Source of the DNA: Liolophura sinensis
Lineage: Eukaryota; Mollusca; Polyplacophora; Chitonida; Chitonidae
DNA length: 64,000 nucleotides
NCBI RefSeq assembly: GCF_032854445.1
Contig: NC_088295.1
Coordinates: forward strand, 2,501 to 66,500
Reading direction: 5' to 3'
Shown here: positions 419 through 42,500 of the stretch, piece by piece
How positions within the stretch are numbered: the stretch's first letter is position 1
How the letters are laid out: every line of letters begins with the position of its first letter
Program-made: the position numbers and the translations under genes
The notes under the pieces: generated by a model
Told to the model about the DNA's origin: nothing
Databases searched by the model: none
The model's input: only the letters and a program-made list of their open reading frames with translations

Positions 419-760
419 GCCTTATGAACAGTTGCAATCAAAGCGCGACTGAGATACTTGGTTAGCTGTTATTTGACAGGAACTCATTCACGGACTACGA
501 ATTTTACCTTTGATATGGAATTCATGCCTGGAATATTCATTGTCTGCCTGGCATCATTGAAAACTGATGACCGCTTCTCTCTTGTGTGTTACCGGCTTTA
601 TTTCTTATTTGTATAATTTCTTACATACCTTTGTCTTCGGGAGTTAGTGTTAAACGTTGTTCTGGAAATGGATCTTCCGGTTATCGACTTGGAACGCCCC
701 TTTACGGACTAACGAATGGTATAGGAATGTCGGAACTTGACGCTTATATTTCAACATAAC
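418..760 (+). repeat. Interspersed repeat family X, 5' part, copy 1
   Basis: This segment recurs, diverged, at about 8,810-9,058 on the other strand, and in part at 23,828-23,960 and 61,150-61,420. Shared landmarks are gcaatcaaagcgcgactgag, attcatgcctggaatat, catcattgaaaactgatga and agtgttaaacgttgttctgg. No terminal repeats, A-tail or clear reading frame were found, so the class is unknown. Confidence 0.6.
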
Positions 761-810
761 AGAGATTGGTGTTTTAGAACACGGATGTGGGTTTTACAAA
801 TTTTGCTCTT

Positions 811-1046
811 GCTTAAGTGCATTTAGAAGTCGGTGAGGGGATACACTGGACAAGGCATTCTTATGGATGTACAACTTCTTGGTTTATTTAACACAACGTT
901 TCGATGCAGATACTAGCATCGTTATCAAGTGAAATGATAAAAAATGATGATCATTTCACTTGATAACGATGCTAGTATCTGCATCGAAACGTTGTGTTAA
1001 ATAAACCAAGAAGTTGTACATCCATAAGAATGCCTTGTCCAGTGTA
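811..1046. mobile_element. Hairpin insertion with 97-bp perfect inverted arms
   Basis: Bases 842-938 and 950-1046 are exact reverse complements over 97 bp around an 11-nt spacer (aaaaaatgatg). A 31-bp unpaired piece, 811-841, precedes the hairpin. The whole insert is flanked by the 11-bp direct repeat attttgctctt (800-810 and 1047-1057). Removing it rejoins the surrounding repeat as it reads in sister copies. Absence of any arm mismatch means the insertion is recent or the arms are kept alike by gene conversion. It carries no reading frame. It may be a foldback or MITE-like element. Confidence 0.7.
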
Positions 1047-1057
1047 ATTTTGCTCTT

Positions 1058-1570
1058 TTTAATGATTTGGTCTTTCTAACCAGTTTGTCATTTAACAACA
1101 TCACATTTTACAAGGAGGGAAGTGGCAGTTTGTATCATTTTACTGCGTTTGTCATTTTGCAACATGGCATTTTGCAACATTAAAGTGGTTATTTACAACT
1201 TAGATTTCTTAACATGGAATTTGGCTACATGGAAGTAACAGTTTACAACTTTAAATTCTATAACGGACGTTTGTCATTTTACAACATGGTATTTCGCAAC
1301 ATTAAAATGGTAGTTTTAAACTTAAATCTTTTTTGCTGCCTTTGTCATTTTACAATGCGGCTTTTTTCAACTTGACGGTTTTAGTATTCCCCAATGCGGA
1401 GGATCGGTAGATTGCCACATAATAGTGGGCTGGCGGTTTTGTCTTTTCAACATAGCGGTAATTTGGTATTCTACGACACGGAAGTGGGTTTAACGATCAA
1501 GGTCTTTTACTGCTTTAGCCTTTCTACTAGATTTATCATTTATCAGCATTTTACAACATGGAAGAGGCAG
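1058..1570 (+). repeat. Long companion repeat (R2) block
   Basis: This is a set of diverged repeats built on phrases such as cattttacaacatgg, agtggcagtttacaac, ttttactgctttggtc and gatcggtagattgcc. The same order returns at about 4,490-5,480, 8,475-8,800 and 9,690-10,800, each time next to a 21-bp array. No gene is seen. Open frames here come from repetition. Confidence 0.6.
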
Positions 1571-1907
1571 TTTACAACCTATATATGGTATTTTACAACT
1601 TATGTGTGGTATTTTACAGCTTATATGTGGTTTAACGTATATGTGGTGGGATATGCCAAATTAAAGCCGAACAGTAAAAAAAGGCAAATACTTTGAACCG
1701 TTGCAACTTCTATGTCGTATTATACAAACTAATAACTTAGTATTTTTACAACTTATATGTGGTATTTTAAAACCAATATGTGGTGTTTGACAATTTATAA
1801 GTGATATTTTACGACCAACATGTGGTATTTTACAACTTCTATGTGGTATTGTATTTTAAAATTATCTATCCGCAATATACATGTGGAATTATACAACCAC
1901 ATAATTG
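1571..1907 (+). repeat. 21-bp AT-rich tandem repeat array, segment 1
   Basis: The monomer is 21 bp, built from acaacttatatg followed by tggtatttt. It alternates with a variant containing ccaacatgtgg, so the higher unit is 42 bp. A unique stretch at about 1,640-1,700 (aaaggcaaatactttgaac) interrupts it and recurs at 8,028 and 10,890. Tc1 copy 1 cuts the right end. Confidence 0.75.
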
Positions 1908-2020
1908 TATACTATCCAAAAAAAGAAACGCATAAGCCCGTTTTTGGCGGAGGTGATGCAGTCTTTTCAATTATGCATAACTAAATAAGAATTGCTATTC
2001 TGCAAATATTTTTTTACACA

Positions 2021-2420
2021 GATTAAGGAAGGGTCCATATCTAGACAACAAGGTCATCAACTTGAGGTAAGACACTCACAATGAGTCTCCCACTTGAGTG
2101 GAATGTCAGTATCTGTTGTGACCACCACGGGCACGAATAACAGTTCTGACACGCCTTGTCATGGACTGGATGAGACGCTGGATAGAGGCCTGGGGAATGT
2201 TCTGCCACTCCTCCTGCACAGATTAAGGAAGGGTCCATATCTAGACAACAAGGCCATCAACTTGAGGTAAGACACTCACAATGAGTCTCCCACTTGAGTG
2301 GAATGTCAGTATCTGTTGTGACCACCACGGGCACGAATAACAGTTCTGACACGCCTTGTCATGGACTGGGTGAGACGCTGGATAGAGGCCTGGGGAATGT
2401 TCTGCCACTCCTCCTGCAAA
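2021..2420 (-). repeat. 200-bp tandem duplication inside Tc1 copy 1
   Basis: Bases 2,021-2,220 and 2,221-2,420 are near-identical direct copies (both begin gattaaggaagggtccat) covering the transposase 3' end and the adjoining non-coding end. Copy 2 of the element has the segment once. The duplication lies after the stop codon of the complete frame, so it adds a second, useless C-terminal piece. Confidence 0.9.
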
Positions 2421-3302
2421 CATGCAACTTGCTCTTGAAGCGTTTGGGGTTGAGGTTGACGTTGGCGTAGACGTCGATCAAGTTCATCCCACAGATGCTC
2501 AATTGGGTTAAGATCCGGGGAACGGGACGGCCAGGGTAGCACATTTACATTGTTTTCGGCGAGGAAGTCCCTTGTGACACGTGCCGTGTGCGGTCTGGCG
2601 TTGTCCTGCTGGAACAACTCCCGCTGAACGTCAATGACAGGTAAGAGGTGTGGCTGCAGGATGGTGTCTTGGTAGCGTACGGCCGTAAGATTTCTCTGAA
2701 CGTGGACAAGATTTGTACGACCAGTATACGATATTGCTGTCCACATCATCACACTCCCTCCACCAAATCTGTCCACTTGGCGTACGCAGTTAGGGGCATA
2801 ACGTTCGTGAGCACGTCTGTAAACCCGGTTTCTACCATCACGTCTCCGCAATAGGAATCTGGACTCATCACTGAACCAGTTGCGTAGATTCCATGCAGTC
2901 ACGTTGTTACACCATCGGAGGCGATTGGCGCGATGGTAAGGACGCAGCACGATCCCAACATAGGGCCTCCTGGCTCTCAGTCCATGTTCCACTCAGCCTG
3001 TTCCGCACTGTCTGACCTGATATCCTCCTCAGTCCCGGTATGCTGGCTGCTGTGCTTTCAGCTGTAGCACAACAGTCACGCAAATGGAGGACCCTTATGT
3101 AGCGATCTTGGGCTGCTGTAGTGACACGTGATCGACCTGAACGCCGACGGTCATTTGTTGTCCCAGTATTGTTGTAGCGGGCAGCAAGCCGTGAAATCGT
3201 GCTCTGGCTGACGTGTAGACGCCTAGAAATGGACGATTGGGACTCTCCAGCTTGAAGTCTTCCAATGGCAATATTTCTTGTGACAGTGTCAAGACGTGGC
3301 AT
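2306..3302 (-). pseudogene. Tc1-family transposase, frameshifted (copy 1)
   Basis: The N-terminal part (3,302 leftward) starts MPRLDTVTRNIAIGRLQAGE and carries the paired helix-turn-helix that binds the element ends. The remainder, in another frame to 2,306, carries the DDE catalytic domain: the GGGSVMMW strand, FQQDNARPHTA with the second Asp, and SPDLNPIEHLWDELDRR with the terminal Glu. The product ends RGGHNRY, as family members do. An extra base at about 2,991 (ttccActcag against ttccctcag in copy 2) shifts the frame after RNRL. In addition, 12 bases just before FSDESRF are missing relative to copy 2. The enzyme would act in the nucleus to cut and rejoin the transposon at TA sites. This copy cannot encode a full one. 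Confidence 0.88.
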
Positions 3303-3608
3303 GTTGAATCAGCTTGAAAATACCACTTGAAAGACGCCGATTTCCGGCCCGAAGTTGCGGTTTTATAGTCACACACTGCATGCTTTTCCACGTGATGCAG
3401 TGTGGTGCTGTATTTTTTACTTCTTCCAAAAACGGCCTCCAAACTCAACATTTTCAACCAAGAAATGTTTTGAGGAATAAAATGTGTGCTAACTGTGACT
3501 ATTAACAATATTAAAACACATTTTGCTCATGAAATGAAGACAAAATGTATTTATTTCATTTTAAAATAAAACAAAACACCTATGCGTTTTCTTTTTTTGG
3601 ATAGTATA

Positions 3609-4490
3609 TTTTAGAACTTATATGTGGTATGGTACAACCAACATGTGGTTTGTTTACAAGTTTTCCGCGTGCAACTTACATGTTCAATTACACAACTCAT
3701 CTTGGTATTGTTCAACTTATATTTGGTATTGTACAACCAGCACGTGGTACTTTACATCTTATTTATTTGCAACTTACATGTGGAATTATATATATATATA
3801 CCATATATGGTATTGTAAAACTGATATGTTGAATTATGGACCCCACATATGATATTTTACATATTTTATGTGGTATTTTACAACTTATATTTGGAATTGT
3901 ACATCTCACATGTGGTATTTTACAACTTATATGTGGTACTGTACAAGCAACATAATGTATTTTTCTACATATCTACCTGTAACTTACATGTGAAATTATA
4001 CAAACCACGTATGGTATTTTACAAGTTATATGCGGTATCGTACAACGAACAGCTGGTATTTTACAACTTATCCGCGTGCGACTAACATGTGTAATTACAC
4101 AACCCACATATGGTATTTTACAACCTATAAGAGGTATCCTACAACCAAAATGTGTTATATTACAACTTATATGTGGTATTGTACAAAGAACATATGCTAC
4201 TTTTAAACTTATTTACTTGCAACTTACATATGGAATTTTACAGCCGACATATCGTAATTTAGAACTTATGTGTGGTATTATAAAAGCAACATGTGGAAAT
4301 TTTCCAACTTCTCCGCCCGCAACTGACATGTTGAACGCCTCAACTTATATGTGGTATTATACAACCAACATGTGGTATTTTACAACTAATTCGCAGCAAT
4401 TTACATGTTGTAATTATGTAACCACATTGGGTATTTCACAACATATATGTGGCACTGTACAACCAACATGTAATATTTTACAACTGAACA
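3609..4490 (+). repeat. 21-bp AT-rich tandem repeat array, segment 2
   Basis: About 40 diverged 21-bp monomers are present (tgtggtattttacaac core). Because 21 is a multiple of three, stops are scarce in several frames and frames up to 210 codons appear, with heptapeptide repeats such as QPTCGIL and TTNMWYF. These are artefacts of the period. A short TA run lies at 3,788-3,803. Confidence 0.8.
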
Positions 4491-5480
4491 CAGGATTGTT
4501 ATATTCCCATATATTAGTGGGCTGGTGGTTTGATTTTTCCAACATGGCGGCGATCTGGTATTCTACAACAGCGACGTGGGTTCTACGATCTTGGTCTTTT
4601 ACAGCTTCAGTCTTTCCCACTCGGTTTGTCATTTTACAACATGGGAGTGGCAGTTTACAGCTTGGATCCTTTCACTGCGTTTTGTCATTTTACAAAATGG
4701 CATTTTGAACGAAACACATTTGGTATGTTAAAACATGGAAGTGGGTTTGACAATTCTGGTCTTTTACTGCTTTGGTCTTTCTACTAGTTTTGTCATTTAA
4801 CAGCATGGAAGTGGCTGTTTTCAAATTTGATCCTTTTACTGCCTTTGTCATTTTACAACATGTCATTTTCAATTAAACACATGAATTATTCTATAACATG
4901 GAGGTGGGTTTCACGATCTTGGTCTTTTACTGCTTTGGTCTTTTTACACGGTTTGTCGCTTTTTACAAAATGGCATTTTACAACATGTAAGTGGCAATTT
5001 ACAAAATAGAACCTTTTAGAGCCTTTTTCATTTTACATCATGGCATTTTTAAGGTTAACAAAGGATCGGTAGGCTAAAGCAAACCAGTAGACTGGCGGCT
5101 TTATTTCTTTTTTAATATAACGGCCGTTGGTAGTTTACAACACCAACGTGTGTTCTACGATTTTGTTTATTTATTACTTTGGAATTTATACTCCGTTTGT
5201 CATTTAACAACATTACAGTTCACAACATGGAAGTGACGGTTTACAACTTAGATCCTTTTACTGTGTTTCTCATTTTACAATACGGCATTTTTCAATTTAA
5301 TAGAGAAAGGGGAGATTGCAACATGGAAATGGGCTAGCAGTTTTACCTTTACCTCATAACGGCGATTTATAGTGTTCTACGACACGGAGGTGGCCTTTAC
5401 GATCTTTGTCTTTTACTGCTTTGGTCTTTCTATTGGCTTTATCATTATTCAGCATTTTACAACATGGAACTGGCGGTTTA
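4491..5480 (+). repeat. Long companion repeat (R2) block, two to three units
   Basis: Diverged units contain ggtcttttactgcttt, gtttgtcattttacaac and aacatggaagtggcag. Two start points are recognisable by agtgggctgg or agactggcgg (about 4,517 and 5,088) and a third by atgggctagcagttt (about 5,329). No gene is seen. Confidence 0.6.
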
Positions 5481-5731
5481 CAACTTACATGTGGTATTTT
5501 ATAACTTATATGTGGTATTGCACGGCCAACATGGGGTTCTTTACAACTTATACACGAGCAACTTACATGAGGGGTTACACAACCCACATGTGGTATTTTA
5601 CAGCTGATATGTGGTATTGTATAACCAACATGTGGTTTTTTACAACTTACCTGTGGTATTGCACAACATATTTTTTTGTGGAATGTGGAATTTTGAAACC
5701 CACATATCGTAATTTGCAATTTATATACAAG
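5481..5731 (+). repeat. 21-bp AT-rich tandem repeat array, segment 3
   Basis: About ten monomers of the acatgtggtattttac type run up to the left end of Tc1 copy 2. No gene is seen. Confidence 0.7.
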
Positions 5732-7267
5732 TATACTATCCAAAAAAAGAAACGCATAACCCAGTTTTTTGCGGAGGTGATGCAGTCTTTTCAATTATGC
5801 ATAACTAAATAAGAATTGCTATTCGGCAAATATTTTTTACACAGATTAAGGAAGGGTCCATATCTAGACAACAAGGCCATCAACTTGAGGTAAGACACTC
5901 ACAATGAGTCTCCCACTTGAGTGGAATGTCAGTATCTGTTGTGACCACCACGGGCACGAATAACAGTTCTGACACGCCTTGTCATGGACTGGATGAGACG
6001 CTGGATAGAGGCCTGGGGAATGTTCTGCCACTCCTCCTGCAAACATGCAAATTGCTCTTGAAGCGTTTGGGGTTGAGGTTGACGTTGGCGTAGACGTCGA
6101 TCAAGTTCATCCCACAGATGCTCAATTGGGTTAAGATCCGGGGAACGGGACGGCCAGGGTAGTACATTTACATTGTTTTCGGCGAGGAAGTCCCTTGTGA
6201 CACGTGCCGTGTGCGGTCTGGCGTTGTCCTGCTGGAACAACTCCCGCTGAACGTCAATGACAGGTAAGAGGTGTGGCTGCAGGATGGGGTCTCGGTAGCG
6301 TACAGCCGTAAGATTTCTCTGAACGTGGACAAGATTTGTACGACCAGTATACGATATTGCTGCCCACATCATCACACTCCCTCCACCAAATCTGTCCACT
6401 TGGCGTACGCAGTTAGGGGCATAACGTTCGTGAGCACGTCTGTAAACCCGGTTTCTACCATCACGTCTCCGCAATAGGAATCTAGACTCATCACTGAACC
6501 AAATGCGTCACAAGTTGCGTAGATTCCATGCAGTCACGTTGTTACACCATCGGAGGCGATTGGCGCGATGGTAAGGACGCAGCACGATCCCAACATAGGG
6601 CCTCCTGGCTCTCAGTCCATGTTCCCTCAGCCTGTTCCGCACTGTCTGACCTGATATCCTCCTCAGTCCCGGTATGCTGGCTGCTGTGCTTTCAGCTGTA
6701 GCACAACAGTCACGCAAATGGAGGACCCTTATGTAGCGATCTTGGGCTGCTGTAGTGACACGTGATCGACCTGAACGCCGACGGTCATTTGTTGTCCTAG
6801 TATTGTTGTAGCGGGCAGCAAGCCGTGAAATCGTGCTCTGGCTGACGTGTAGACGCCTAGAAATGGACGATTGGGACTCTCCAGCTTGAAGTCTTCCAAT
6901 GGCAATATTTCTTGTGACAGTGTCAAGACGTGGCATGTTGAATCAGCTTGAAAACACCACTTGAAAGACGCCGATTTCCGGCCCGAAGTTGCGGTTTTAT
7001 AGTCACACACTGCATGCTTTCCATGCGTAAGTTCGGCGTGTAAGACTGCACGTGATGCAGTGTGGTGCTGTATTTTTTACTTCTTCCAAAAACGGCCTCC
7101 AAACTCAACATTTTCAACCAAGAAATGTTTTGAGGAATAAAATGTGTGCTAACTGTAACTATTAACAATATTAAAACACATTTTGCTCATGAAATGAAGA
7201 CAAAATGTATTTATTTCATTTTGAAATAAAACAAAACACCTATGCGTTTCTTTTTTTGGATAGTATA
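5732..7267 (-). mobile_element. Tc1-like DNA transposon, copy 2
   Basis: The element is 1,536 bp and has the same 27-bp inverted ends as copy 1 (tatactatccaaaaaaag / ctttttttggatagtata). Like copy 1 it is inserted at TA in a 21-bp array. It carries about 26 bp near 7,021-7,050 that copy 1 lacks, and it has no internal duplication. The coding region is complete in length but is stopped by one nonsense codon. Confidence 0.9.
5929..6936 (-). pseudogene. Tc1-family transposase with one premature stop (copy 2)
   Basis: The frame starts MPRLDTVTRNIAIGRLQAGE at 6,936, runs through the helix-turn-helix region (SSISRRLHVSQSTISRL) and is broken by TGA at 6,508-6,510, just before RIWFSDESRF. The rest of the DDE domain follows in the same frame to 5,929, with HTARVTRDFL and SPDLNPIEHLWDEL intact. 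The total length, about 336 codons, is normal for Tc1. The stop reads as a CGA to TGA change, the kind produced by deamination at CpG. This is the least damaged of the transposases here. Confidence 0.9.
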
Positions 7268-8030
7268 TATTGTATTTTACAACTTATGTGTGGTATTATA
7301 GAACTATCAGGTGGAATTATAAAACACTCATGTGCTATTGTACAAGCAACAAGTAGTATTTTACAACTTATCTACCCGCAACTTACATGCGGGAATATAC
7401 CACCCACACATGGTATTTCAGAATTTATAAGTGGTGTTGTGCAATCAACATGTGGTATTTTACAACTTACATCTATTCGCATGCAACTTACATGTGGAAT
7501 TGCAGAACCCGCATATGGCATTTAACAACGTCTTTGCGATATTCTACATCCAACATGTGGTATTTTATAACTTATATATGGTGTTGTACAAGCAACGTTC
7601 TGGTATTTTGGAACTTTTCTACCCGCAACATACGTGTGGGCTTATACAAGGCACATATGGTATTTTGCAACTGATATGGTTGTATTCTACAACCAACATG
7701 TGTATTTTACGACTTATATGTATAATTACACAGCCAACTTGTAGTAGTTTAAAATTTACATGTGATTTGTACAATCATCGTGTGGTAATTTACCACTGAA
7801 CTACCCGCAACTTACATGTGGTATTTTACAAGCAAACATATGTATTTTACGACTTATATGTATTATTACACAGCGTACTTGTAGTAGTTTAAAATTACAT
7901 GTCATTTTGTACAACCATCGTGTGGTATTTTACCACTGAACTGCCCACAACTTACATGTGGAATTATACAACCCACATATGGTATTTTACAACTTGGATC
8001 TGGTGTATTTAACTGGCAAATGACAAAAAG
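7268..8030 (+). repeat. 21-bp AT-rich tandem repeat array, segment 4
   Basis: About 35 diverged 21-bp monomers (ttacatgtggaattat and tatatgtggtatttta variants) are present. A roughly 130-bp piece around 7,690-7,800 is repeated at 7,835-7,935 (acagccaacttgtagtagt / acagcgtacttgtagtagt). No gene is seen. Confidence 0.75.
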
Positions 8031-8041
8031 GCAAATGCTTT

Positions 8042-8312
8042 TATTTATTTATTTATTTATTTGATTGGTAACAGTATTATCGTTAATAGGGATTACACTT
8101 TTTGAATATAGCACAGATTCTAGTGCTGAAATTTGGCTGAGACCACTGCGGGTAACCTACGACCATCTGCAGGTTGCTGCAGACCTTCCCAATTACGGGC
8201 AAACAACAAACCAGCATGAGCTGCACTTGAACTCACAGCAACCGCGTTGGTGAGGGGCTCCTGGGTCATTACGCTGCACTAGCGCTCTAACCAACTGAGG
8301 CACGGAGGTCGC
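8042..8312 (-). mobile_element. tRNA-derived SINE with target-site duplication
   Basis: Read on the minus strand from 8,312, it starts with a tRNA-like head: A-box-like tgcctcagttggttagagcg, then gtgagttcaagtgcag near the B-box position. A core with gggaaggtctgcagcaacc follows, then an A-rich tail of aaataaat units. The 11-bp direct repeat gcaaatgcttt flanks it (8,031-8,041 and 8,313-8,323). The repaired site matches the repeat sequence at 1,680 and 10,892. It would have been transcribed by RNA polymerase III and mobilised by a LINE. Its 3' half is diverged from the other SINE copies here. Confidence 0.85.
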
Positions 8313-8323
8313 GCAAATGCTTT

Positions 8324-8800
8324 GAACGGTGCAACTTATACGTGGTACTTACAACTAACATGTGGTATTTTACAACTTATCTGCAAGCAACTTACGTGTG
8401 GAATTATAGAACCCGCATACATTATTTTACAACTTATATGTGGTATTGCACAACCAGCATGTGGTATTCTACAGCTTAAGAGAGGATCGATAGATTGCCA
8501 TATAATAGTGGGCAGGTGCTTTCATTTTTTTTCAACATGGCGGAGATGTAGTATCCTACAACATGGAGGTGGTTTTTACGATCTTGGTATTTTACTGCTT
8601 TGGTTTTTCTACCCGGTTTGTCATTTGACAACGTGGAAGTGGCAGTTTACAAATTAGATCCTTTTACTGCGTTTTGTCATTTTACGACATAGCAGTTTTC
8701 AGCTTAATAGATCTGGTATTCTACAATTTGGAGGTGGGTTTTACAAACTTTTCTTTTACTGCTTTGATCTTTCTACTAGGTTTGTCATTTGACAGATAAT
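8324..8800 (+). repeat. 21-bp array followed by long companion repeat (R2)
   Basis: Short 21-bp monomers run to about 8,470. An R2 unit follows (gaggatcgatagattgcc, cataatagtgggcagg, ttttactgctttggtt). No gene is seen. Confidence 0.6.
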
Positions 8801-8809
8801 TGCAAGATC

Positions 8810-9058
8810 TATTTCCAAAACAACGTTTAACACTAGCTCCCAAATACAAAGGTATGTAAGAAATTACACACAAGAGAGAAACGGTCATCAGTTTTCAATG
8901 ATGCCCGGCAAGCAGTGGATATTCCAGGCATGATTTCCATATCAATGTTCAAATTCGTAGTCCATGAATGAGTTCCACGTGAGATACCAATTAAACAAGG
9001 TATCTCAGTCGCGCTTTGATTGCAGCTGTTCATAAAGACATCATGCACATGTAATGAG
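8810..9058 (-). repeat. Interspersed repeat family X, 5' part, copy 2 (inverted)
   Basis: The minus strand matches 418-680 closely, including gcaatcaaagcgcgactgag, aactcattcatggactacg and catgcctggaatat. With copy 1 it brackets the 0.76-8.8 kb repeat mosaic in opposite orientations. Confidence 0.6.
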
Positions 9059-9220
9059 CATGGCTGCCTTTACGGCCCCTTGCCCCAGGTTAAGCGGTAA
9101 AAGATACAGTTCGAAAATGATGAGCGTTACAGACCTAACCCAAATAGATTGTGATTCAAAAGTAACGGACTTTCTTTGTGCGCTTTTTCTACCTACCTTG
9201 AGAGAGTCAAGTATCATAAC

Positions 9221-9412
9221 TTTAACTGACGCGTTCAAACGTGTGGCTACTAGGTAGCGAAAGTAGGTCGAACGCGTCCATCAGGTGGCTACATGTACAA
9301 TATGAGTAGCAAAATGAGATGGACGCGTCTATCAAGTGGATACTGGAGCTATTATGATTGACGCGTCCATACTTGTGTATACGGGTAGTCAGGATGATGG
9401 ACGCGTCCAATT
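9221..9412 (+). repeat. Five ACGCGT palindromes at 38-51 bp spacing
   Basis: ACGCGT occurs at 9,229, 9,272, 9,323, 9,361 and 9,401. Most copies sit within a longer atggacgcgtcca context, and cag/caagtggctac-like links appear between the first boxes. It is either a small degenerate tandem repeat or a cluster of binding sites. No gene is adjacent to assign it to. Bases 9,413-9,690 hold nothing I recognise. Confidence 0.5.
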
Positions 9413-9689
9413 CCATTTGCTAAAAGGCTTTTATTTTGCTAACAAGTAACACCCACAAATGCTGCGCTCTTTAAAAACCAAGAGTAGAGTCTCTAACAAT
9501 GTCTGGTAAAGTCGGCGCACTTTGATGTTTGCGTGAGGTGGGGATTTCACCAGTTGACACAAAGGCATTTTCAATAGTTGGATTTCCATGGCTTGACTTG
9601 TGTGCGGACGAGCGAAGAAAGCGTTGAGGGAAGGTAGCGCTAACGGCGGTTTTTTTTCGAGCCGCCGATTTTTGGTTAGTTCGTTGCCA

Positions 9690-10800
9690 GGGTTTTGTTA
9701 CTTTACAACATAGGGGTGGGTTTGCATTTATGTAACTGGCACAAGAAGTTTTTTGACGACCGTTTGCTATTCTTCATCATGGATACGGCTTTTTCGGTAC
9801 TGACCTTTTACCACTTTAAACTTTTTTCCCGGCTTTTCGTTTTACAACATGGTGTTTTTCAACTTGATTGCAGGTTAGAATTTTACAACTTAAAACGGGG
9901 TTTTCCATAGTCTCGATTTGCAACTTCGGTCTTAATTCAATTTGGAATTTTCAATGCATGGTGATCAGTTGGTGTTTTTACACTTTAGAAGTAGGTTTTT
10001 CGGTATGGGTCTTAGCGGCTGTAGTCTTGTTAAATTTTGGCCTTCTTATTTGGTTTACTATTTAATATAAGCGTCATGTATAATAACATTTCACAACTTT
10101 GTAATGAGATGGCGGATAACAACATGGCGGTGGCATTTTACAACTTTGGCTTTTATAACTGTTTGTTATTTTCTTTTTACATGGTATTTTTCAACTTAAC
10201 AATGGGTTGGTAGACATAATAGTGGGCTGGCATTTCTTTCACATTTTGGAGGTGAGCATTGTTTGCGATATTTATAATAATCTTTATCCTTAATCCTTAT
10301 CCTTATCCTTATTACATGAGGGCGACATTTTACAACTTCAATTTTTTTTACCCTTTGTCACTTTTCAACTGGTACCAACTGATAAGCTGGTATTTTCCAA
10401 GTAATTTGAGGTTTAGAAGATTACCACATGCGGTTTTTTCTTTTTTTAACATAGCAGCAATTTGGTATTCTACAACATGGTGGTGGGTTTTACGATCCTG
10501 GTCTTTTACTGCTTTGGTCTTTCTTCTCGGTTTGTCATTTACCAACATTGCGTTTTACAACATGGAAGTGGCAGTTTACAACTTAGAATCTTTCAGAACG
10601 TTTGTCATTTTACAACACGGCTTAACTTAACAGAGGATCGGTAGATTGCGACATAATAGTGGATTGGCGGTTTTATCCTTTCTCAGCACAGCGGTAATTT
10701 AGTATTCTACGACACGGAGGTGGGTTTCACGATCTTTTACTGCTTTGGTTTTTCTACTCCGTTTGTCATTTATCAGCATTTTAGAACATAGAAGTATAAT
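9690..10800 (+). repeat. Long companion repeat (R2) block, diverged to fresh units
   Basis: The left part is diverged. From about 10,200 two clear R2 units follow (gggttggtagacataatag; gaggatcggtagattgcg). A short ccttat repeat lies at 10,283-10,312. Open frames such as 10,259-10,630 consist of repeat sequence and are not counted as genes. Confidence 0.55.
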
Positions 10801-11260
10801 TCACATGTAAGTTTGCAACCTACATATGGTATTTTACAATTTCTGTGTGGTGTAGCGTGTATGCGGTGTGCATGTTGGTTGTATAATACAGTACATAAAG
10901 GCAAATACTTTGAACGGTGCAATTTCTATGTGGTATTATACAACCGACATATGGTGTTTGACAACATATCTACCCGCAACTTGCATGTGAAATGATATAG
11001 CCCACATATGGAATTTTACAACTTATATGTGGTATTCTACAACCGGCATGTGGTATTTCACAACCTGTATGTGCTATTTTACCACCAACGTGTGTTATTT
11101 CACAACTTATATGTGGTATTATACAACCAACATATGGTAATTAACAACTTACATGTGGTATTGTACAACAAACATATATTATTTACAACTTATCTACCCG
11201 CAACTTCCATGTGGAATTTCACAACCCACTTATGGTATTTTAGATCTTATATCCGATGTA
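10801..11260 (+). repeat. 21-bp AT-rich tandem repeat array, segment 5
   Basis: This is the most regular stretch of the 21-bp family. It shows the 42-bp alternation of ttatatgtggtatt and ccaacatatggtaa types and the recurring phrase tatctacccgcaac. No gene is seen. Confidence 0.75.
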
Positions 11261-11309
11261 TTTAATTAAGCTGGGACATGCCAAAGAAAAATCGAACAGT
11301 ACAAAGAGT

Positions 11310-11815
11310 ACAAAAGTACTTATATGAGATATTATTCAACCACATGTAGTATTTTACAGCTTATATACGGTGTATTTAATGGAGTTGTAAAATATCGTGG
11401 GTATAGGTTTAAGAGTACTAATGAAACACTCCTAATACTCCAACTTATATGTGGTATTATCAAACCGATATGTGGTATTTTACAACTTATATGCGGTGTA
11501 CTTAATAACATTGTAAAATACCACATGTATAGGCTGAACAATACAAAGGCAAACACGTCAACACTAACACGTGGCATTATACAACCCAGATGTGGTATTT
11601 TACAACTTATATGCGGTGTTGTCAATTCAGGTGTGAAATGCTACATATAATTTGAATAGTACAAGCGGTAAACACGTCTAACACCCCATCTTATGTGTGG
11701 CTTTATACAACTGGCATGTGGTATTTTACAACTTGTATGCAGTGTATTTAATAAAATTTTGAAATACCACATGTAAGTAGAACTGTACTGGTGGTAGACA
11801 CATTTAACATCATAG
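11310..11815 (+). repeat. About 124-bp higher-order repeat, four units, each with a hairpin
   Basis: Units begin near 11,316, 11,440, 11,567 and 11,690. Each holds direct 21-bp monomers and then an inverted one. In the best unit, 11,470-11,485 (atgtggtattttacaa) and 11,511-11,526 (ttgtaaaataccacat) are perfect 16-bp inverted arms with a 25-nt loop. The inverted motif plus its flank returns alone at about 12,480-12,530. Confidence 0.65.
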
Positions 11816-12528: not shown

Positions 12529-13744
12529 TAGGGCGGCACCAAATTGTACTGGTTTTAATGTTCATATTCCTCGTGAAATATTTGCTAATTGGGTTGAATG
12601 CGCTTTCTTTTCACGAGTTTCTTGGTCGGAGAATGCTTCTTAAGGAACATAAATCGCAGAACTGTTGCATTCGCATTTTGATGCAACAGTGACCATACCA
12701 CGTCTGAGTGCTGATGAACGTCAAAGAGTAATCTACAACATTGAGGCAGGTTGGAACGTTTCACGTGTCGCCAGGCATTATGGTACTCTCTAGTCCACCA
12801 TAAACATACTGCTTGACCGCTACCAACGTTAATGACCGTGCTCAGAATGGACGACCTCGTGTGACGTTAAACCATCAAGACCGCTTCATTGTCAATTCAT
12901 TGTCAAGGAACCGGAATTAGTTCCTGCAAGCAGCCACTACAGCTCGAAACACAACTGAAACAAGGAACCGACCTATCATCACCAATACTGTACGTCGCCA
13001 ACTCAACGACGCGAGTTTGCTTTGCCGTCGACCTTATGTTGTTTCACGTTTGACTTCATGTCACAGACGCCCTCGACTTAACTGAACCGCAGGTCATCGG
13101 AACTGGTGAAATAGCAATGGCAGAATATCGTCTTTTCGGATGAAAGTCGATTTTGTGAGGGTATGGCGACGTAGAGGTGAAAGGTTCAGTGATCCATGTG
13201 TATTTGGAGAACGACTGTTGGGGGGGGGGGGGGGCTTCCGTCATGATTTGGTGGGGGGGGGGGGGAACAATCAGCTGGGGACGTCACATTCCGCCAGAGA
13301 TCGTCCAAAACAGGGACAGGGACGTTCCATTTTTTGCTCAAAGACGTAATGTTGTTCTACAGCAGGATAATGCACGCGCACATACCGCACGATTGACACA
13401 GACATTTCTACTGATTTTAAGTCCGGATTTAAATCCTATCGAGCACCTGTGTGACGAAATTGAACGCCGCATTCGCGATAAACTCCTGAAGCCACTTACC
13501 TTGCAACAACTGCAACAAAGCGTCGTTGACACTTACAATAACATTCCTCGGAGGTTCATCCGAAGTCTCCTCAACAGCATGGGTAGAAGTTGTGCTGTTG
13601 TTGATGACGCTAAAGGGGTCACATCTGTTGTTGACGGTAATTTTTATTCCATCAGACAAAAAATTTCCAAAAGACGTGGATATTGAGCCAAATTAAATGA
13701 GTCCATTTCCAATTCTTTAGAAGAATCTGCACGATATCATCTTT
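12529..13744 (+). pseudogene. Decayed Tc1-like element with transposase remnant (copy 5)
   Basis: The N-terminal helix-turn-helix region is readable from about 12,706 (PRLSADERQRVIYNIEAGWN, then SRVARHYGTL) with stops and frameshifts. The GRPRVT linker, the RRPYVVSRL region and SDESRF-like coding follow. The C-terminal half is open from 13,177 to 13,683: SVMIW, then QQDNARAHTARLTQTFL, and LSPDLNPIEHLCDEIERRIRD with the terminal Glu. The conserved pair of glycine runs is encoded by G tracts of 15 bases (13,220-13,234) and 13 bases (13,253-13,265). This suggests slippage expansion. The outer limits come from comparison with the deleted relative at 22,880-23,292. No clean inverted ends were found. 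Confidence 0.8.
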
Positions 13745-15091: not shown

Positions 15092-16608
15092 ACTAGTGCT
15101 CAAAAGAAAGTATACAGCTGTTTGATCAGACATCAAATAAAAACGGAAAGAAATATATTTGAAATTATTTTTAATTCCATAAGAATATTCCATTTCACCT
15201 GAAACGTCCATACATACAGTTCATTAAATGGTGAAGGTTTGGTTTGATGGTCAGTCAAAGAGATGTGGTGTCAACAGAACATTTACACATTTGCAAAGTT
15301 CAAATGAAGCATTTTTCCCTCTGGAAATGTCATTCAATTCATGCTCAGTAGCGAGTGTGGCCTTCATTGGCATTGATGCAGGCCACAACACGTCGCCGCA
15401 TTGATGACGTCAGGCGTCATTCTTGTTGGAGACACTCTTCCAGCTGTTGAACGGTCACAGGTGGCACTGGCAGTCTTCTGACTTGTCTGCCCAGGTGGTC
15501 CCACAAGTGCTCAATTGGATTGAGGTCGGGTGAACATGCCGGCCATGGTAAGAGATCGATCTTGGCGTTCTGTAGAAAGTTGTTCGTCAATCTTGCAGTA
15601 TGAGGTCTTGCATTATCATGCTGGTACAACATTCCTCTTTGCTGTACAGTTAGTGGATGAATGGCATTACAACCGGTCGTAAAACTTCATCCGTGTATCT
15701 GCGAGCATTGAGGTTCCCATAAATCACCACCAGCCTCGTCTTCAGATCGCCGCAGATGCCTCCCCACACCATCACACTACCACCTCCAAACGCTCGAACT
15801 TGCTGAATGCAATTTGGCACCAAACGTTCTCTTACACGCCTGTATACCCTAGCCCGACCTTCATTTTTGTACACGCAAAACCTGCTCTCGTCGGAGAACA
15901 TTACCCGTGCCCATTCACGCCTCTGCCAGCGTAGAACGCGCCTGGCCCATATCAGCCGACGACGTTGACTTTGAGGCGTCAGATAAACTCCACAATACGG
16001 TCGACGTGCCCTAATACCGTGTTGACGTAGTCGACGGTAGACTGTGTGCCGACTAATCGGGTACCCTAATGCCGTCGCCGCCGTTGACGTTGCCGTTACG
16101 TTCCGATTGCGGAGGTGAATGGTCCGGATGTGTCGATCTTCAGCGGGGGTGGTGACGCGTGGTCCACCGCTCCTAGACCTGTCGGATGTAACGCCTGTCT
16201 GCCGGAGTCGCTGCATAAGTCTGACGATAGTTGCTCTTGTGCAACCAAAGGTTCTGGCAATGGCGGCGTTGGTCGCTCCTTGCTGGGCCATGCCGACAGC
16301 TCTCTCTCGCTCAACTTGGCTCAAACGTGGCATACCTCTGGTGTTTTTCTGACGACTGTGTTCCTAACGTTTCCCGTCGACTCATTTATACCGCCAAAAT
16401 GCACGTTTATGTTGTGTTACACGTGGAAGGGCCATTTTTCGATTTTATGCTAAGTTTAGGCAAATCCTGCTTTGTTGGGCCAGTTTGTTCCCTGGATGGA
16501 TCGGCGTTTACACGGGTAATAGGGCTCATCATGGATAATTTCTCAATTTTTTACTTTGCGCGATTTTTATGTATTTGTTTTGGTGCATACTTTCTTTTGA
16601 GCACTAGT
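15092..16608 (-). mobile_element. Tc1-like DNA transposon, copy 3 (distinct subfamily)
   Basis: Perfect 22-bp inverted ends actagtgctcaaaagaaag.. lie at 15,092-15,113 and 16,587-16,608, with TA just outside. The element is 1,517 bp. Its ends and transposase differ clearly from copies 1, 2 and 4, so it is a separate invasion. Confidence 0.9.
15345..16333 (-). pseudogene. Tc1-family transposase, one frameshift and one stop (copy 3)
   Basis: The protein starts MPRLSQVERERAVGMAQQGA at 16,333. It has the two helix-turn-helix units (AAIARTFGCTRATIVRLMQR; ISRHTVYRRLRQHG), then WARVMFSDESRF with the first Asp, GGGSVMVWGGI, HDNARPHTARLTNNFL with the second Asp, and SPDLNPIEHLWDHL with the terminal acidic residue of the DDE set. 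A one-base shift lies near 15,645-15,655, between VMPFIH and the next segment. A TGA at 15,417-15,419 stands where related proteins have Trp (QQE-W-R). After it the frame stays open to GHTRY and the stop at 15,345-15,347. Full length would be about 330 residues. Confidence 0.88.
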
Positions 16609-16863: not shown

Positions 16864-18359
16864 TACACTCTTCCAAAAAAGAAACACAAAACCCAAACGT
16901 CAATGTAAATTTGATGTTATTCAAGGGCGTGTATATCGGCGGAAAACAAAGATACATGAATGAAATTTTGTGGAGCAATACATTGCTATGTTGGCCATAT
17001 TTCATGAGAATAACAGTCATCACAGTCATTACTGCTGTCCACCAGGTGGTGTTGAAGTCAGTACCTCTTATGACCACCTCCAGCTGCTACCATTGCCCGA
17101 CACCTCCTGGGTACAGATCAAATCAGTCGTTGGATGTTTTGTTGTGGAATCCTTCTCCATTCATCCTGCAGCATGTGGAACAACTGTTGAAGATTCTGTG
17201 GTGGAATACGACGTTGACGCACCCGTCTGTCGATCTGATCCCAAAGGTGTTCGATTGGGTTTACATCCGGGGATTTGGAGGGCCAGGGAAGGGTATTGAT
17301 GTTGTTATTGGCCAGGTAGTCCACGGTGGCACGTGCTGTGTGGGGCCTGCCGTTGTCCTGTTGGAAGAGCTGCCGTTGAAGGTCAACAAGGCAAAGGACG
17401 TGCGGGCGGAGAATCTGGTGGATGTATCGATTGGCCGTCAGATTGCCTTGGACAAGCACAAGCTCCGATCTGCGGGTGTATGGGATCGCTCCCCACACCA
17501 TAACACTCCCTCCACCGAATCTGTCCACCTGTCTGATGCAGTGAGGAGCAAAACGTTCATGACGTCGTCTGTAGAAACGGTCTCTACCATCACGTCGCCT
17601 GAGGAGATATGCGCCTCCAGTTTGCCAGGTTCCATGGCAGCACCATCTCACTCGTCGACGTCGATGTAGTCGTTTCAAGGATGGGGCAACTTTTGGACGT
17701 TTGGCACGTATTCCTACTTCTCGGAGACGGTTCCTGATTGTCTGATCGGACACTGTTCGGGCTCCAAACTGTTCTTGTGCTGTGTCCCGGGCGGCACGAT
17801 GGCGGTCACCTAGTTGGGTTACCCGGATATACCGATCTACCGGCAGGTGTGGTCATTCTAGGTCGTCCTGATCTTGGACGGTCATTTGTCAAATTTGTTT
17901 GACGAAATCGATCCCACAACCGAGTTATTGTGCTGGGATGAACGTTGAAGATCCTTGCCATCTCACTCTTTGATTCGCCAGCTTGCAATCGTCCAATTGC
18001 CTGATTTCGGTCGGCAGCGTTGAGACGTCCCAATTTCGTGTACAACACTTGCAAAGATATTGGATAAAATTGTGAGATTCGTTTGGGTCTTTTATAGTCA
18101 CATGCTGTACTCATGTTTTGCACGTGACAAACAATCATTGTGCCTGAACTTCGTTCTGCACGACATCAACGCACACCATTACAATTCTAATTGATAAAAC
18201 CGTTCAAAATCATTTTGGTTGCGTTTGGTCAAGGATGATCTTCTAAAACATTCCAGTAACAATGTGGAACCCTACAAAACTGTTTGAGTTAAAATATGTG
18301 TACAAAATTGTAAGTATCATTTCTGAATTTCATTTTGCGTTTCTTTTTTGAAGAGTGTA
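16864..18359 (-). mobile_element. Tc1-like DNA transposon, copy 4
   Basis: Inverted ends start tacactcttccaaaaaag (16,864) and end cttttttgaagagtgta (18,359). They share the ccaaaaaa-gaaac core with copies 1 and 2, so it is an older relative of the same subfamily. The element is about 1.5 kb. Bases 16,609-16,863 between copies 3 and 4 hold nothing I recognise. Confidence 0.88.
17058..18033 (-). pseudogene. Tc1-family transposase, multiply broken (copy 4)
   Basis: The expected start codon reads TTG (18,031-18,033) before GRLNAADRNQAIGRLQAGES. The helix-turn-helix region SEMARIFNVHPSTITRL is intact. A frameshift near 17,800 follows GRPRMTTPA. The second frame carries SDQTIRNRLREVGIRAKRPK, then a region where the conserved FSDESRF is lost. 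It continues with GGGSVMVWGAI, FQQDNGRPHTARATVDYL and SPDVNPIEHLWDQIDRR with the terminal acidic residue. A TGA after IQRLI (ORF end 17,118) again looks like CGA to TGA. The frame then continues to HKRY and a stop at 17,058-17,060. Confidence 0.85.
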
Positions 18360-23292: not shown

Positions 23293-24864
23293 CACCACGG
23301 CTGCTATGTTTGCGGAAGATACTCATCTTTAACACTGAAAAACGCTCTCTGGAACATCCATTACATATCTACACACTTTTGATTACTCAGAATGAGCTTC
23401 CGCTATGACATTGTAAAAATTCTCGTTTCTTTCGGAATTCAGAATATGGTGAATGAAATGAAATGAAATAGCTTTGTTGTGTCTTTTGAGCAAGCTGTAA
23501 CATTTTAGTGGTTCCTTACCGACAGATATAGTAATAATAAAGGATCATGTTCCTTTCTTTTATTTACTTATTTCCTAACCAAACAAATAACAGTTCACAG
23601 TGAGTGTTTAATTTATATTAATTACAATGCATGCTTTATCCGTGCTTCCTAAAAGACGCAAAGTATGTTTGAAAATTAACTACCACCATCACCAGCGAAA
23701 ACCATACCAAATCAGATCAACCGTTCAACTAACAACGTTTCAATGTACTATAGCCAGTTTTAGTAAATCTTCTTTCGCAGAAACTCAGCAGGTTTAGGTC
23801 ACTTAGCCATATTCAATAAGTGCATTCAAAATGGATCTTGCGATTATCGACTTGGAACTCCTTTTACGGACTACAAATGGTATAAGAATGTCAAACATGA
23901 CACTTATATTTATCGACTTCACTTTAAACCCTGTTTCTGAAACTGCCATATTTGAAATTTTTTACAGGTTTTAGTATTATTTAACCTTAATTATATTTTA
24001 CAACGTGTAGTGGTGGGAAAGCTCTATTTTTCTGCATGTTCACACATCGAGTGGCCTACATCCCGTATAGGTTGTTCCTAGTTCGCGGCACGAGAAGGGT
24101 ACCATTCAATGAGGCGCGGTATGAAGCTAGTGATCATTCACGTTCGACAATGACCGCCCTCGTCCCTTCCATGTGCACCGTGCCTCGACCCGCGAGGAGC
24201 AGGTCTTGACTTTGGCTCCAATGACTTCAGTCCACACATAAATAATGTATTATTAAGTTCTAAGATACATTTATGTTCTAAATCTAAATATATGACCTAA
24301 ATATAAAACTCATACTTATCTGTAAGAAAACATTGCCATTTACTACAAACATTATCTTTGTGAATGCGCTGGCTGTAACTATCAAGCTCCAACAATCCAG
24401 TTAAGTACACTAATGTACTTATGAAATTGGTTCCCTGTGTTTATCACTCTATTTCATCCAAGCATTACCTGAAAATAAAAATGTTAAAATCACCTTTTTT
24501 AAAAGATACCTATATCATATATATCAGGTTAACTTTTGTTAATACACAAATAAAGCTTCCAAAGCTTACATTATCCATTTTTTGTCACTGCGATCTTTGA
24601 GAGTTGGCTAAACTCTAACACAGAAACGCTATTTAATGTTCATGGTTATACATCACAAACATAAAGATATTTTTTAAGCAAAATGTAAATGAATCTCTAT
24701 GGACACATCCCTCGGTGAGATGTATAATCCTAATCAAGATTATTATGTACACAGTTTTACTATATTTATGAAAACTGCTTTCCAATAACGACTGACATAG
24801 TCTGGCGCAACAACACAAAACCTTGGATTACAGGGGCTATTGTCACAAGAAACAGTATATACTA
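23293..24864. other. No gene recognised; one family X piece
   Basis: Bases 23,828-23,960 match the family X segment (atggatcttgcgattatcg, tttacggactacaaatgg). Bases 24,030-24,235 are notably GC-richer than the surroundings, without a motif that I know. The rest is AT-rich with stops in all frames. Confidence 0.5.
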
Positions 24865-39500: not shown

Positions 39501-42500
39501 CGCCGATGTGTAAATAAAACATTTTTAAGTGCGGCGTAAAACACCAATCAAATAAATGGGTGAAATAATTTTGCTGTGGCACGTAGATACCGTGAATATT
39601 AAAATGGTTTGTACCAAGCCACCGATGACAGCTCGATTGTTGCAGGATTAAACATAACAGACATATCCTAAACGTGCATGTGTCTTTCTCACACAGGAGT
39701 TCCACGAAAGGATCCGCATTTATGAGGAAGTTCCCGTAGATGAACCCATTTGTGGATTTTACAATGAACGTTGTCAGCCGACTCCAGGTACGTCTTGAGT
39801 CATTCCCACACTCAACACGCATAGTTTATCCTGTAGCAAGCATACAGATGGCCTGACAGTGTTAATTTAACGCCAGCGGTGACAACGCCCTACTATTTTT
39901 TAAAGTGAACTGTTGAACCTTCACAAGAGATAAAACAGGCGGATCGGAATAAATGACAACCACTTGGAAAAAGTGCCGCGTGGTTCATACCTTCATGTAA
40001 GATATTGTTTTCAGTCATTGCGTGTCTTCATGTCAGCGGCGCCTTGTTTTAATGTGTGATGTTACTCATTCGCACTTGTTTTAATGTCAGGCAATTTCAA
40101 TGCACATGTACTTCTTTAAGCAAGTATATATCGACTGCTTGTGTAGGTCAGAAAAGTTTTTAACATGAAGCTTACTGACCTATGTTCCTTCACGATTTAA
40201 GCTTTAAGATAAGACATATCATTATGATTATTACACTCATCGTTATGAAGGTGACTAAATTGACCAATACAAAAGGTGACTAAACTGACCAATACATTGT
40301 AGATTATACGACCGAAATCGTAGTGGGTGTTCTAGGAGGACTTGTGCTGATAATTCTGCTGGTGACCGCTGTCCTCTATAGGTGAGTCAAACTGAACTCT
40401 GGATAGTAAATATAGCCTTTCGAGAATACCTTAGTCCACAACTATCACCTATTGATGGAGATGATCTACTTATTTTCATGTTATTCTTTATTGAAAGTCA
40501 ACGCACAGTGTTTTGAGTAATTGTAGCCCAGTGTAACATCATTGCATTTTCACCATCTTTTGCTTAAGTAATAACTGCTCTGATTTAACACTCTATGCTG
40601 TCAGTGTATGACATTCTGTAAACACTTGCTCTATCCATTATGCTGGTGACGACCTACCCCCAGGTCAGTAGATATGTTCTTCTGCGCAGACGTTTTGTTC
40701 ACTAGTCTGCTTCTAATGACCATCCTCTACAGCTAGGTAAAACTGTATTCTGTAAGCCTCTAAAGTGCACCTTTCTGGTGGTGGCGACTCTCCACTGTAG
40801 TGGAGTAAAACCGTCTTCTGTAAGCATTTTTGTTTACCAATGTGCTGCATTCCCCAATTCCGATGTTTAACATTATGCTATTGATGTCCATTCCTCTACA
40901 TCGTTCTTAAACTGCCTTCTGTAAGAATCTTTCATCACAATACCGCTGATGACGCTTCTGCTCTGTAGCGGAGTAAAACTGTTCGTTAAGACAGCAATAA
41001 TGTCTTCTGTATCCTTTCAAACCCTCTGTTCACCTTTCTGCTGGAAACCACCCTTCCTGTATAGCGGAGTAAAACTAACGTTTGTAAGCATCTTTTATGT
41101 CAAGACACCTGACAAGATTATGATGTTGATGACCTTCCTCTGTAAGCATCTTTGTGTACCATTATACTGCTAATGACCATTCATCCGTAGTGGAATAAAC
41201 TTGTTTTTTGTAAGCATGTTTGTGTACCATTCTTATGTTTACGATCACCCTCTGTAATTACTAAAACTGCCGTCTGTAAAGATCTTGATCATTTCTTTAT
41301 TTTTTTGCGTAATATTATGTTATTTTCTTGATGGGGAACCCCTATAGCGTAGCATTATGCCTTATGTAACCATTCCACCCCTTGTTCACTATTTTGCTGT
41401 AGACGAACTTTGGTTTACCATTTTGGAGGCGACGACTCTGGCTTAAAGCAGAGTATAACTGATTTCTGTCATCGTCTTTTTGTGTCTTTGTGACAGTGAC
41501 TTCCTTTCGTCTGTAAGGGAGTAAATCTGTCCTATCTGTAAGGGAGTAAATCTGTCTGTAAGCATCTTTGCGTTCTATTATTCCGGTGACTACCATTCCT
41601 CTATAGCGGAGAGAAGCTGTCTTCTATAAGCATCTTTATGTATCATTATTCGGGTGACTACCATCCCAATGTAGCGGAGTAAAGCTGTTTTTTGTAAGCG
41701 TCCTTGTGCACCATTATTCCGGTGACGACCATCTCCATGTAGATGAGTAAAGTTGTCTTCTATAGGCATCCTTGTGTACCATTATTCCGGTGACCATTCC
41801 TCTATAGTGAAGTAAAACTGTTTTCTGTAAGCATCCTTGTGTACTATTCTGATGCTGACGACCATTTCTTGAAAGTAAAAATTGCTCTGTGAGCATATTT
41901 GCGTACCATTATCTCGGCAACGACGATAGCGGAGTAAAGCTGTCTTCTGTTAACACCTTTGTCTACCATTATACCTGTGACGACCATTTCTCTGAAGCGG
42001 AATAGAACTGTCTTCTGTAAACATCTTTGTCTACAACTATACCGGTGACTACCATCCTTCTGTTCTGAGGATTTCTTCGTCGTTATATGATTAAAAACTT
42101 GTTAAGTTCGACGTTAGACCCCAAACCCTCACTCACTCACAATCCCTCTGAAGCGTAGCAAATCTGTCTTCTGACAGCATTTTTGTTTACCATTATACCC
42201 GTGACTACCATTTCTGTAGAGCGGAGTAGACTTGTCTTCTGTAAACATCTTTGTCTACCATTAAGCCGGCGACTAATATCCCTCCGTAGCGGAGTAAAGC
42301 TGTGTTTTGTAAAATAATCTTTGTCCACCATTATACAAGTGATGAAGTCATTTCTCTATAGCGCGGTAAAACTGTCTTTTGTAAACAGTTTTGTCTATTA
42401 TTATACCGGTGACGACCATTTCTCTGTAGCAGAGTGAGGATATCTTCTGTAAACATCTTTATCTGCCATTGTACCGGTGAGGACCATTCCTCTGTAGCGG

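What the first reader, a model, noticed from the sequence alone, without database searches (positions are those of the whole stretch)
811..1046. Recent insertion that is mostly a perfect 97-bp-arm hairpin
Both arms match at every one of 97 positions with an 11-nt loop, while the surrounding repeats are heavily diverged. The insert is flanked by an 11-bp direct repeat (attttgctctt), and its removal restores the sister repeat sequence. That supports a true insertion rather than a local palindrome. A transcript would form long double-stranded RNA. The 31-bp unpaired lead (811-841) is unexplained.
Basis: partly seen in the sequence, partly recalled or inferred. Interest (0 to 1): 0.7.

Follow-up and report, generated by a model that had tools for sequence, protein, structure and literature searches.

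The report
Penelope retrotransposon stub forming a hairpin
The perfect hairpin is a tiny, apparently recent insertion made by a Penelope-type retrotransposon, in which two short DNA copies of the same element end were joined head to head; it is one of many such insertions in this animal genome, and together they give clues to how these elements insert.

Summary
In detail: 97-bp arms, 100% complementary, 11-nt loop, 12-bp direct repeat. It is not a singleton. The arm is the end of a Penelope-like element (PLE); longer copies carry the arm, a reverse transcriptase and a GIY-YIG-like stretch. The "unexplained 31-bp lead" is the published PLE "tail", explained there by two adjacent reverse-transcription start sites (PMC3846280, PMC11167929).

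The tail pattern occurs at 131 sites, control 0. I read 94 distinct tailed copies. In 49 an inverted partner arm lies within 641 nt, and 48 of these 49 partners stop near the inner start site without a tail. Of 47 tested, 32 have a target duplication (shuffled pairs 1.4%; median 12 bp). In 25 of 48 the right copy runs at least 10 nt further than the left, which simple snap-back synthesis cannot give. Two separately started cDNAs joined head to head fit better. Many truncation points lie near a predicted transcription start (exploratory).

Verdict: an ordinary member of a known kind, within a mechanistically useful population.

The parts
799..810 (.). left copy of target-site duplication AATTTTGCTCTT (808-810 overlaps the first bases of the tail)
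   Evidence: the repeat finder; duplication test
808..841 (+). PLE tail (extension from the outer reverse-transcription start site), reads CTTGCTTAAGTGCATTTAG...; one base shorter than the family (GTGC for GTGGC)
   Evidence: same tail at 131 genome sites; alignments; published 31-bp tail PMC3846280
842..938 (-). left arm: inverted, 5'-truncated copy of the PLE terminal repeat (pLTR end)
   Evidence: matches the element end in L009
939..949 (.). 11-nt turn AAAAAATGATG; head-to-head junction of the two copies, with a short repeated AAATGAT
950..1046 (+). right arm: sense-oriented, 5'-truncated copy of the same PLE end, stopping at the inner start site (no tail)
968..989 (+). hammerhead-like stem II hairpin GATGC..GCATC followed by GAAA inside the right arm; degenerate core, no Rfam match
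   Evidence: read; stem in the predicted RNA folds; no Rfam hammerhead hit
1046..1057 (.). right copy of target-site duplication AATTTTGCTCTT

Best explanation
The insert is a minimal insertion of a Penelope-like retrotransposon: tail + inverted pLTR end + sense pLTR end, with no coding body. Proposed mechanism: (1) the element's endonuclease cut both target strands about 9-12 bp apart, giving the duplication (the duplication is shown; the cutting is inferred). (2) Each cut end primed reverse transcription on PLE RNA, one cDNA from the outer start site (leaves the tail) and the other from the inner start site about 32 nt further in (the paired ends are shown; the priming is inferred, with in vitro support from a lizard PLE in PMC11167929). 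(3) Both cDNAs stopped after about 100-130 nt, near the predicted RNA 5' end set by the element's own promoter (inferred, exploratory statistics). (4) The two cDNA ends were joined head to head, giving a perfect hairpin because both copied the same template (inferred). Confidence: PLE identity about 0.95, two separate cDNA starts about 0.75, run-off at the RNA 5' end about 0.5.
For: The arm is the terminal sequence of a longer element encoding a reverse transcriptase (Pfam RVT_1, above its curated cut-off). A C-terminal stretch matches the start of an NCBIfam group I intron endonuclease model weakly (E 0.025, below cut-off). Tail pattern: 131 sites, control 0. In 48 of 49 compact copies the partner arm ends at model position 21-41 (median over the 49 is 33); the flank beyond it matches the tail in 1 of 49 (L044, score 31), the other 48 score at most 10, while left-end tails score at least 24. 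Among 18 loci chosen by the arm end instead of the tail, 7 show both arms and all 7 have a tail at one end only; L121 and L123 belong to one tandem array, so about 6 are independent. Duplications in 32 of 47, shuffled pairs 1.4%. Unequal arms: right longer by 10 nt or more in 25 of 48, left longer in 8, within 9 nt in 15. Ends in the 9 nt around the predicted start site: right 16 of 45 (expected 3.7), left 10 of 45. In PMC11167929 a purified PLE protein cuts and extends both strands and starts reverse transcription at two adjacent internal sites that match the tail.
Against: The start-site clustering was noticed before the promoter was read, so its p-values are exploratory; the left-end scan p is only 0.04. 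Left and right ends are correlated (Spearman 0.46), which a shared RNA end predicts but snap-back also would. In the window copy both arms share a tip (ATCATTTCACTTG) not seen in any other genome copy: of 6 sites found with up to 2 mismatches, the 2 exact ones are the window's own arms and the other 4 have 2 mismatches. That could mean one arm was copied from the other, or that the source copy is not in the assembly. PMC11167929 saw no difference in start site between top and bottom strands in vitro, while here one end nearly always has the tail and the other not. One compact copy has tails at both ends (L044). 15 of 47 compact copies lack a convincing duplication. Pfam finds no GIY-YIG domain.
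Confidence: 0.85

Rival explanations
1. Snap-back: one first-strand cDNA (tail + inverted arm) folded on itself at its 3' end and primed the second arm; self-priming of this kind is suggested in PMC3846280 for palindromic PLE junctions.
For: Window arms are perfectly complementary and share private changes at the tip that no other genome copy shows; 15 of 48 compact copies have arm ends within 9 nt.
Against: In 25 of 48 copies the right arm holds 10 nt or more of element sequence absent from the left arm; the partner arm lacks the tail in 48 of 49, whereas copying the left strand to its end would repeat the tail.
Confidence: 0.2
2. Non-autonomous hairpin family (MITE or foldback-like DNA element) that moves as a unit by a transposase.
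For: Many dispersed compact copies with inverted arms and duplications.
Against: Loops differ between copies; arm lengths and truncation points vary; the arms continue into a reverse-transcriptase gene in long copies; the two outer ends are different sequences (tail against none).
Confidence: 0.02
3. Assembly or library fold-back artefact.
For: Perfect inverted arms are a typical artefact form; no reads were available.
Against: A 12-bp duplication, the tail at one end only, and the same design at dozens of loci with diverged arms.
Confidence: 0.02

Closest known systems
Penelope-like elements (PLEs) with inverted pLTR and tail, e.g. Pen2a_Av of Adineta vaga (PMC3846280; abstract, sections 6 and 11 and passages seen)
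   Same: Inverted plus direct pLTR head to head, a 31-bp tail at the end of one pLTR, short duplication (9 bp there), TATA box with a TCACT initiator-like motif in the pLTR, reverse transcriptase gene in long copies
   Different: Here the body is absent: only two truncated pLTR ends of about 100 nt remain. Compact inverted forms of this general kind are 49 of the 94 tailed copies read
Poseidon of Anolis carolinensis (PAc), in vitro system (PMC11167929; parts 1-2 of 4 read)
   Same: Two adjacent internal reverse-transcription start sites account for the tail; both target strands are cut and extended
   Different: In vitro no start-site difference between strands was reported; in this genome the two ends of one compact insertion use different start sites in 48 of 49
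Drosophila foldback elements and MITEs (recalled, no call)
   Same: Dispersed inverted-repeat hairpins with target duplications
   Different: No transposase link; asymmetric outer ends; variable loops; retroelement origin

Membership tests
Penelope-like elements | Reverse transcriptase gene in longer copies sharing the same ends | tested here: met
   L009, L131, L135 ORFs; Pfam RVT_1 E 4.4e-8 and 3.4e-8, above cut-off; weak, not significant sequence match to telomerase reverse transcriptase in PDB, E 0.085
Penelope-like elements | C-terminal GIY-YIG endonuclease in the same ORF | tested here: inconclusive
   One uninterrupted frame in L131 and L135 holds RT, then a stretch beginning GVVYQLKCSCNNSYIGETGR; NCBIfam group I intron endonuclease model positions 1-48 match there, E 0.025, below cut-off; no Pfam GIY-YIG match
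Penelope-like elements | Short tail of 30-40 bp at one pLTR end | tested here: met
   131 pattern sites, control 0; of 49 compact copies 48 have the tail at one end only and 1 at both
Penelope-like elements | Inverted or direct pLTRs with frequent 5' truncation | tested here: met
   Of 94 tailed copies: 49 with an inverted partner ending near the inner start site, 5 with the partner cut off further in, 40 with none within 641 nt
Penelope-like elements | Target-site duplications of roughly 8-15 bp | tested here: met
   32 of 47 with score 8 or more against 1.4% in shuffled pairs, median 12 bp; 15 of 47 below that
Penelope-like elements | Hammerhead ribozyme motif in the pLTR | tested here: inconclusive
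   Stem II and GAAA present by eye, core degenerate; no Rfam hammerhead match
Penelope-like elements | Placement in the PLE clade of reverse transcriptases | not tested
   No reference PLE sequences were at hand; no tree built
MITE / foldback DNA transposon | Symmetric terminal inverted repeats recognised by a transposase | tested here: not met
   Outer ends differ (tail against none) in 48 of 49; long copies encode a reverse transcriptase

The most novel reading that the evidence does not exclude
PLE insertions are built by two coupled cDNA syntheses, one on each target strand, that must use the two different start sites (outer on one strand, inner on the other), and the pLTR-only hairpins are the run-off products formed when both syntheses start at the upstream sites of an RNA and run to its 5' end. 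This would explain the tail, the inverted pLTR and the upstream limit of the pLTR at once, without self-priming.
Probability: 0.45. Interest if true: 0.62.

Novelty: new member of a known kind. Interest (0 to 1): 0.4.

Why it matters
How Penelope elements integrate is still open: PMC11167929 says that later steps are yet to be validated, and PMC3846280 suggests self-priming for the inverted repeats. This genome offers dozens of very short insertions in which both cDNA starts, both stops, the join and the target duplication can often be read within a few hundred bases. They behave like a natural assay of the mechanism and give two sharp predictions: one tail per insertion, and truncations at RNA 5' ends. 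The single window feature is ordinary.

Tried and rejected
MicroRNA or other structured RNA: Rfam gives only sub-threshold hairpin matches for the window stretch and for the other compact copies, as expected for any long hairpin. Hammerhead ribozyme: no Rfam hit; only a degenerate motif by eye. MITE or foldback: rejected, see rivals. Right-copy starts at the place where a hammerhead would cut: 3 of 48 start there (L074, L086, L088 at -35); too few, dropped. Right starts at the base of the stem II hairpin (-28 to -24): 8 of 48, and no left end within -30 to -21; suggestive of a polymerase stall, not pursued. The right-end histogram is constrained by its own search range, so I used the model coordinates and the direct tail test instead; admit only partners whose outer end is at model position 41 or less (5 more of 94 lie further in). 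The tail test by text pattern missed the diverged tail of L117; one search replaces it. GIY-YIG in Pfam: no match up to E 10. Literature: (open-access library only; listings seen) showed no description of pLTR-only hairpin insertions as a class; passages of PMC12910113 and PMC8969392 did not either. Craig et al. 2021 (PMC8557442) is not held; older Penelope papers and Repbase were not seen.

Rows dropped before counts: of 131 pattern sites 100 were listed; 3 listed sites were not fetched. Second sites inside L010, L044 and L105, the overlapping duplicate L077, and two segmental duplicates (L022, L100) were removed; L014 and the window copy were added, giving 94. L044 falls out of the 48 used for arm ends (its right copy scored below the limit), and one of the 48 lacked enough right flank for the duplication test, giving 47.

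Full report
OBSERVATION. The insert is as described: arms 842-938 and 950-1046, 97 nt, 100% complementary, 11 nt apart, with AATTTTGCTCTT at 799-810 and 1046-1057. In 30 mononucleotide shuffles of the surrounding 1 kb the longest perfect arm was 10 nt. The strand folds at -173.8 kcal/mol, z -28. Joining the flanks without the insert gives a sequence that aligns across the junction with sister repeats of the window, best 75% over 181 nt at 10444-10621, and with a similar array near the end of contig C6. No near-identical empty site was seen among the 40 of 1425 candidates that were scored, so the empty state shown is paralogous, not allelic.

THE FAMILY. The window is C1:2501-66500 of a 609-Mb assembly. 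Its COX1 copies have 7 or 8 in-frame TGA in each of the 8 matches, so an animal mitochondrial code, and an animal, is likely. The insert gives 86 matches among the 40 of 237 candidates scored. Some are compact hairpins; others are the same arm at both ends of elements of about 0.5 to 3.4 kb. L009 shows the plan: tail (688-719), inverted copy (720 to about 1770), then the sense copy to 4111, with ORFs for a reverse transcriptase and a C-terminal stretch beginning GVVYQLKCSCNNSYIGETGR. Pfam RVT_1 is above its cut-off. In L131 and L135 both parts lie in one open frame. The GIY-YIG assignment rests on that motif, read by eye, and on a weak NCBIfam match (E 0.025); Pfam gives none. At the thresholds used, the window holds no other part of L009's element.

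THE LEAD. The 31-bp lead is the Penelope tail. PMC3846280 (abstract, sections 6 and 11 and passages seen) describes a "characteristic 31-bp extension" at one inverted pLTR. PMC11167929 (parts 1-2 of 4 read) reports that the tail is the stretch between two adjacent internal reverse-transcription start sites, and that the protein cuts and extends both strands. In G000 the tail pattern occurs 65 + 66 times with 0 + 0 for the reversed control.

THE POPULATION. I read 94 distinct tailed copies (dropped rows are listed under Tried and rejected). In 49 of 94 an inverted partner arm with its outer end at model position 41 or less lies within 641 nt; in 5 the partner's outer end is cut further in; in 40 there is none in reach. 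Among the 49, the partner's outer end lies at model position 21-41 in 48 and at position 2 in one, L044; the median of the 49 is 33, the inner start site. A direct test of the 45 nt beyond the partner arm agrees: L044 scores 31 against the tail, the other 48 score at most 10, and the left-end tails score 24 or more. Of 18 further loci chosen by the arm end instead of the tail, 7 show both arms (L110, L112, L114, L117, L118, L121, L123), each with a tail at one end only; two of them belong to one tandem array. Duplications: 32 of 47 score 8 or more, against 1.4% of shuffled pairs, median 12 bp; 15 of 47 are below that score and unproven. Loops and truncation points differ between copies, so these look like separate insertions, apart from the segmental duplicates removed.

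HOW IT FORMS. If the right arm were copied from the left arm by snap-back, it could not hold element sequence that the left arm lacks, and it should repeat the tail. In 25 of 48 resolved copies the right copy runs 10 nt or more further towards the element's 5' side, in 8 the left does, and in 15 they agree within 9 nt. Some young, little diverged copies show it cleanly: L014 (left to about 160, right from 389), L033 (left to about 73, right from 404), L074 (left to 51, right from 85). This favours two cDNAs started separately from the two start sites. Reiterated arm pieces in L018, L054, L072, L079, L081, L091 and L092 fit template jumping.

WHY ABOUT 100 NT. In the sense strand of L009 a TATATAAG box lies 29 nt upstream of the A of a TCATTC motif, with TCACTT just after it (read), a layout like the pLTR promoter in PMC3846280 (TATA box, 20 bp, TCACT). 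Ends in the 9-nt window around these motifs: right 16 of 45 (expected 3.7; scan p below 0.001), left 10 of 45 (the best 9-nt windows, which overlap this one, hold 11; scan p 0.04). I saw the cluster before reading the promoter, and the uniform null is simple, so this is exploratory. It would make the hairpin a run-off product at the RNA 5' end. Left and right ends correlate (Spearman 0.46), as a shared RNA end predicts.

AGAINST. The window's own two arms share a tip that no other genome copy shows: two exact sites, both in the window, none with one mismatch, four with two. For this single copy, snap-back or a source copy missing from the assembly both remain possible. L044 breaks the one-tail rule.

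VERDICT. A recent-looking, body-less Penelope insertion: a known kind, explained. The population is the interesting part, because it makes the integration mechanism testable from sequence.

Noticed in passing
window 2306-2992, 5929-6474, 15650-16333, 17118-17753 (-) and 13177-13686 (+): Tc1/mariner-like transposase ORFs (recognised by eye from translations); the first overlaps a 200-bp tandem duplication at 2017-2418.
   Followed up: no
window about 1,100-11,800 and G000 C6 about 82.44-82.45 Mb: The diverged repeats flanking the insert also form an array near the end of contig C6 (82.49 Mb long), and the window is at the start of C1: possibly a shared subtelomeric array.
   Followed up: partly
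window 691-751: About 61 bp matching 32 listed dispersed sites at 91-95% identity, probably part of another repeat; most of it also at 23860-23911 and 61351-61402.
   Followed up: no
L023 (C13:6563600-6567400) and C13 6.56-6.61 Mb: A truncated, tail-less arm copy sits inside an array with tRNA genes (Rfam) and seems multiplied with it; 8 arm-end sites there.
   Followed up: partly
C13:16.697-16.723 Mb (L121, L123): 12 arm-end sites, many about 1.3 kb apart: a tailed compact copy captured in a tandem repeat.
   Followed up: no
L027, L050, L070: Three left copies stop 10-12 nt (L027, L050) or up to 26 nt (L070) past the CAAG motif and continue into what looks by eye like one other dispersed repeat (40 scored matches of 212 candidates for the L070 piece): chimeric cDNA or later insertion.
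   Followed up: partly
L072 and L081: About 14 reiterations of a 35-nt arm piece in L072 and about 4 in L081, pointing to polymerase stutter or later expansion.
   Followed up: no
L044 (C8:11512558-11513258): The only one of 49 compact copies with tails at both ends; a longer copy of the element lies beside it.
   Followed up: partly
window 42164-46523, 48627-53247, 54354-55612: Large satellite arrays with 68-bp and 52-bp units, with strong GC skew at 48-54 kb.
   Followed up: no
G000 C99 and C632: Mitochondrial COX1 repeated about every 15.5 kb on C99: concatenated mitochondrial contigs in the assembly.
   Followed up: no
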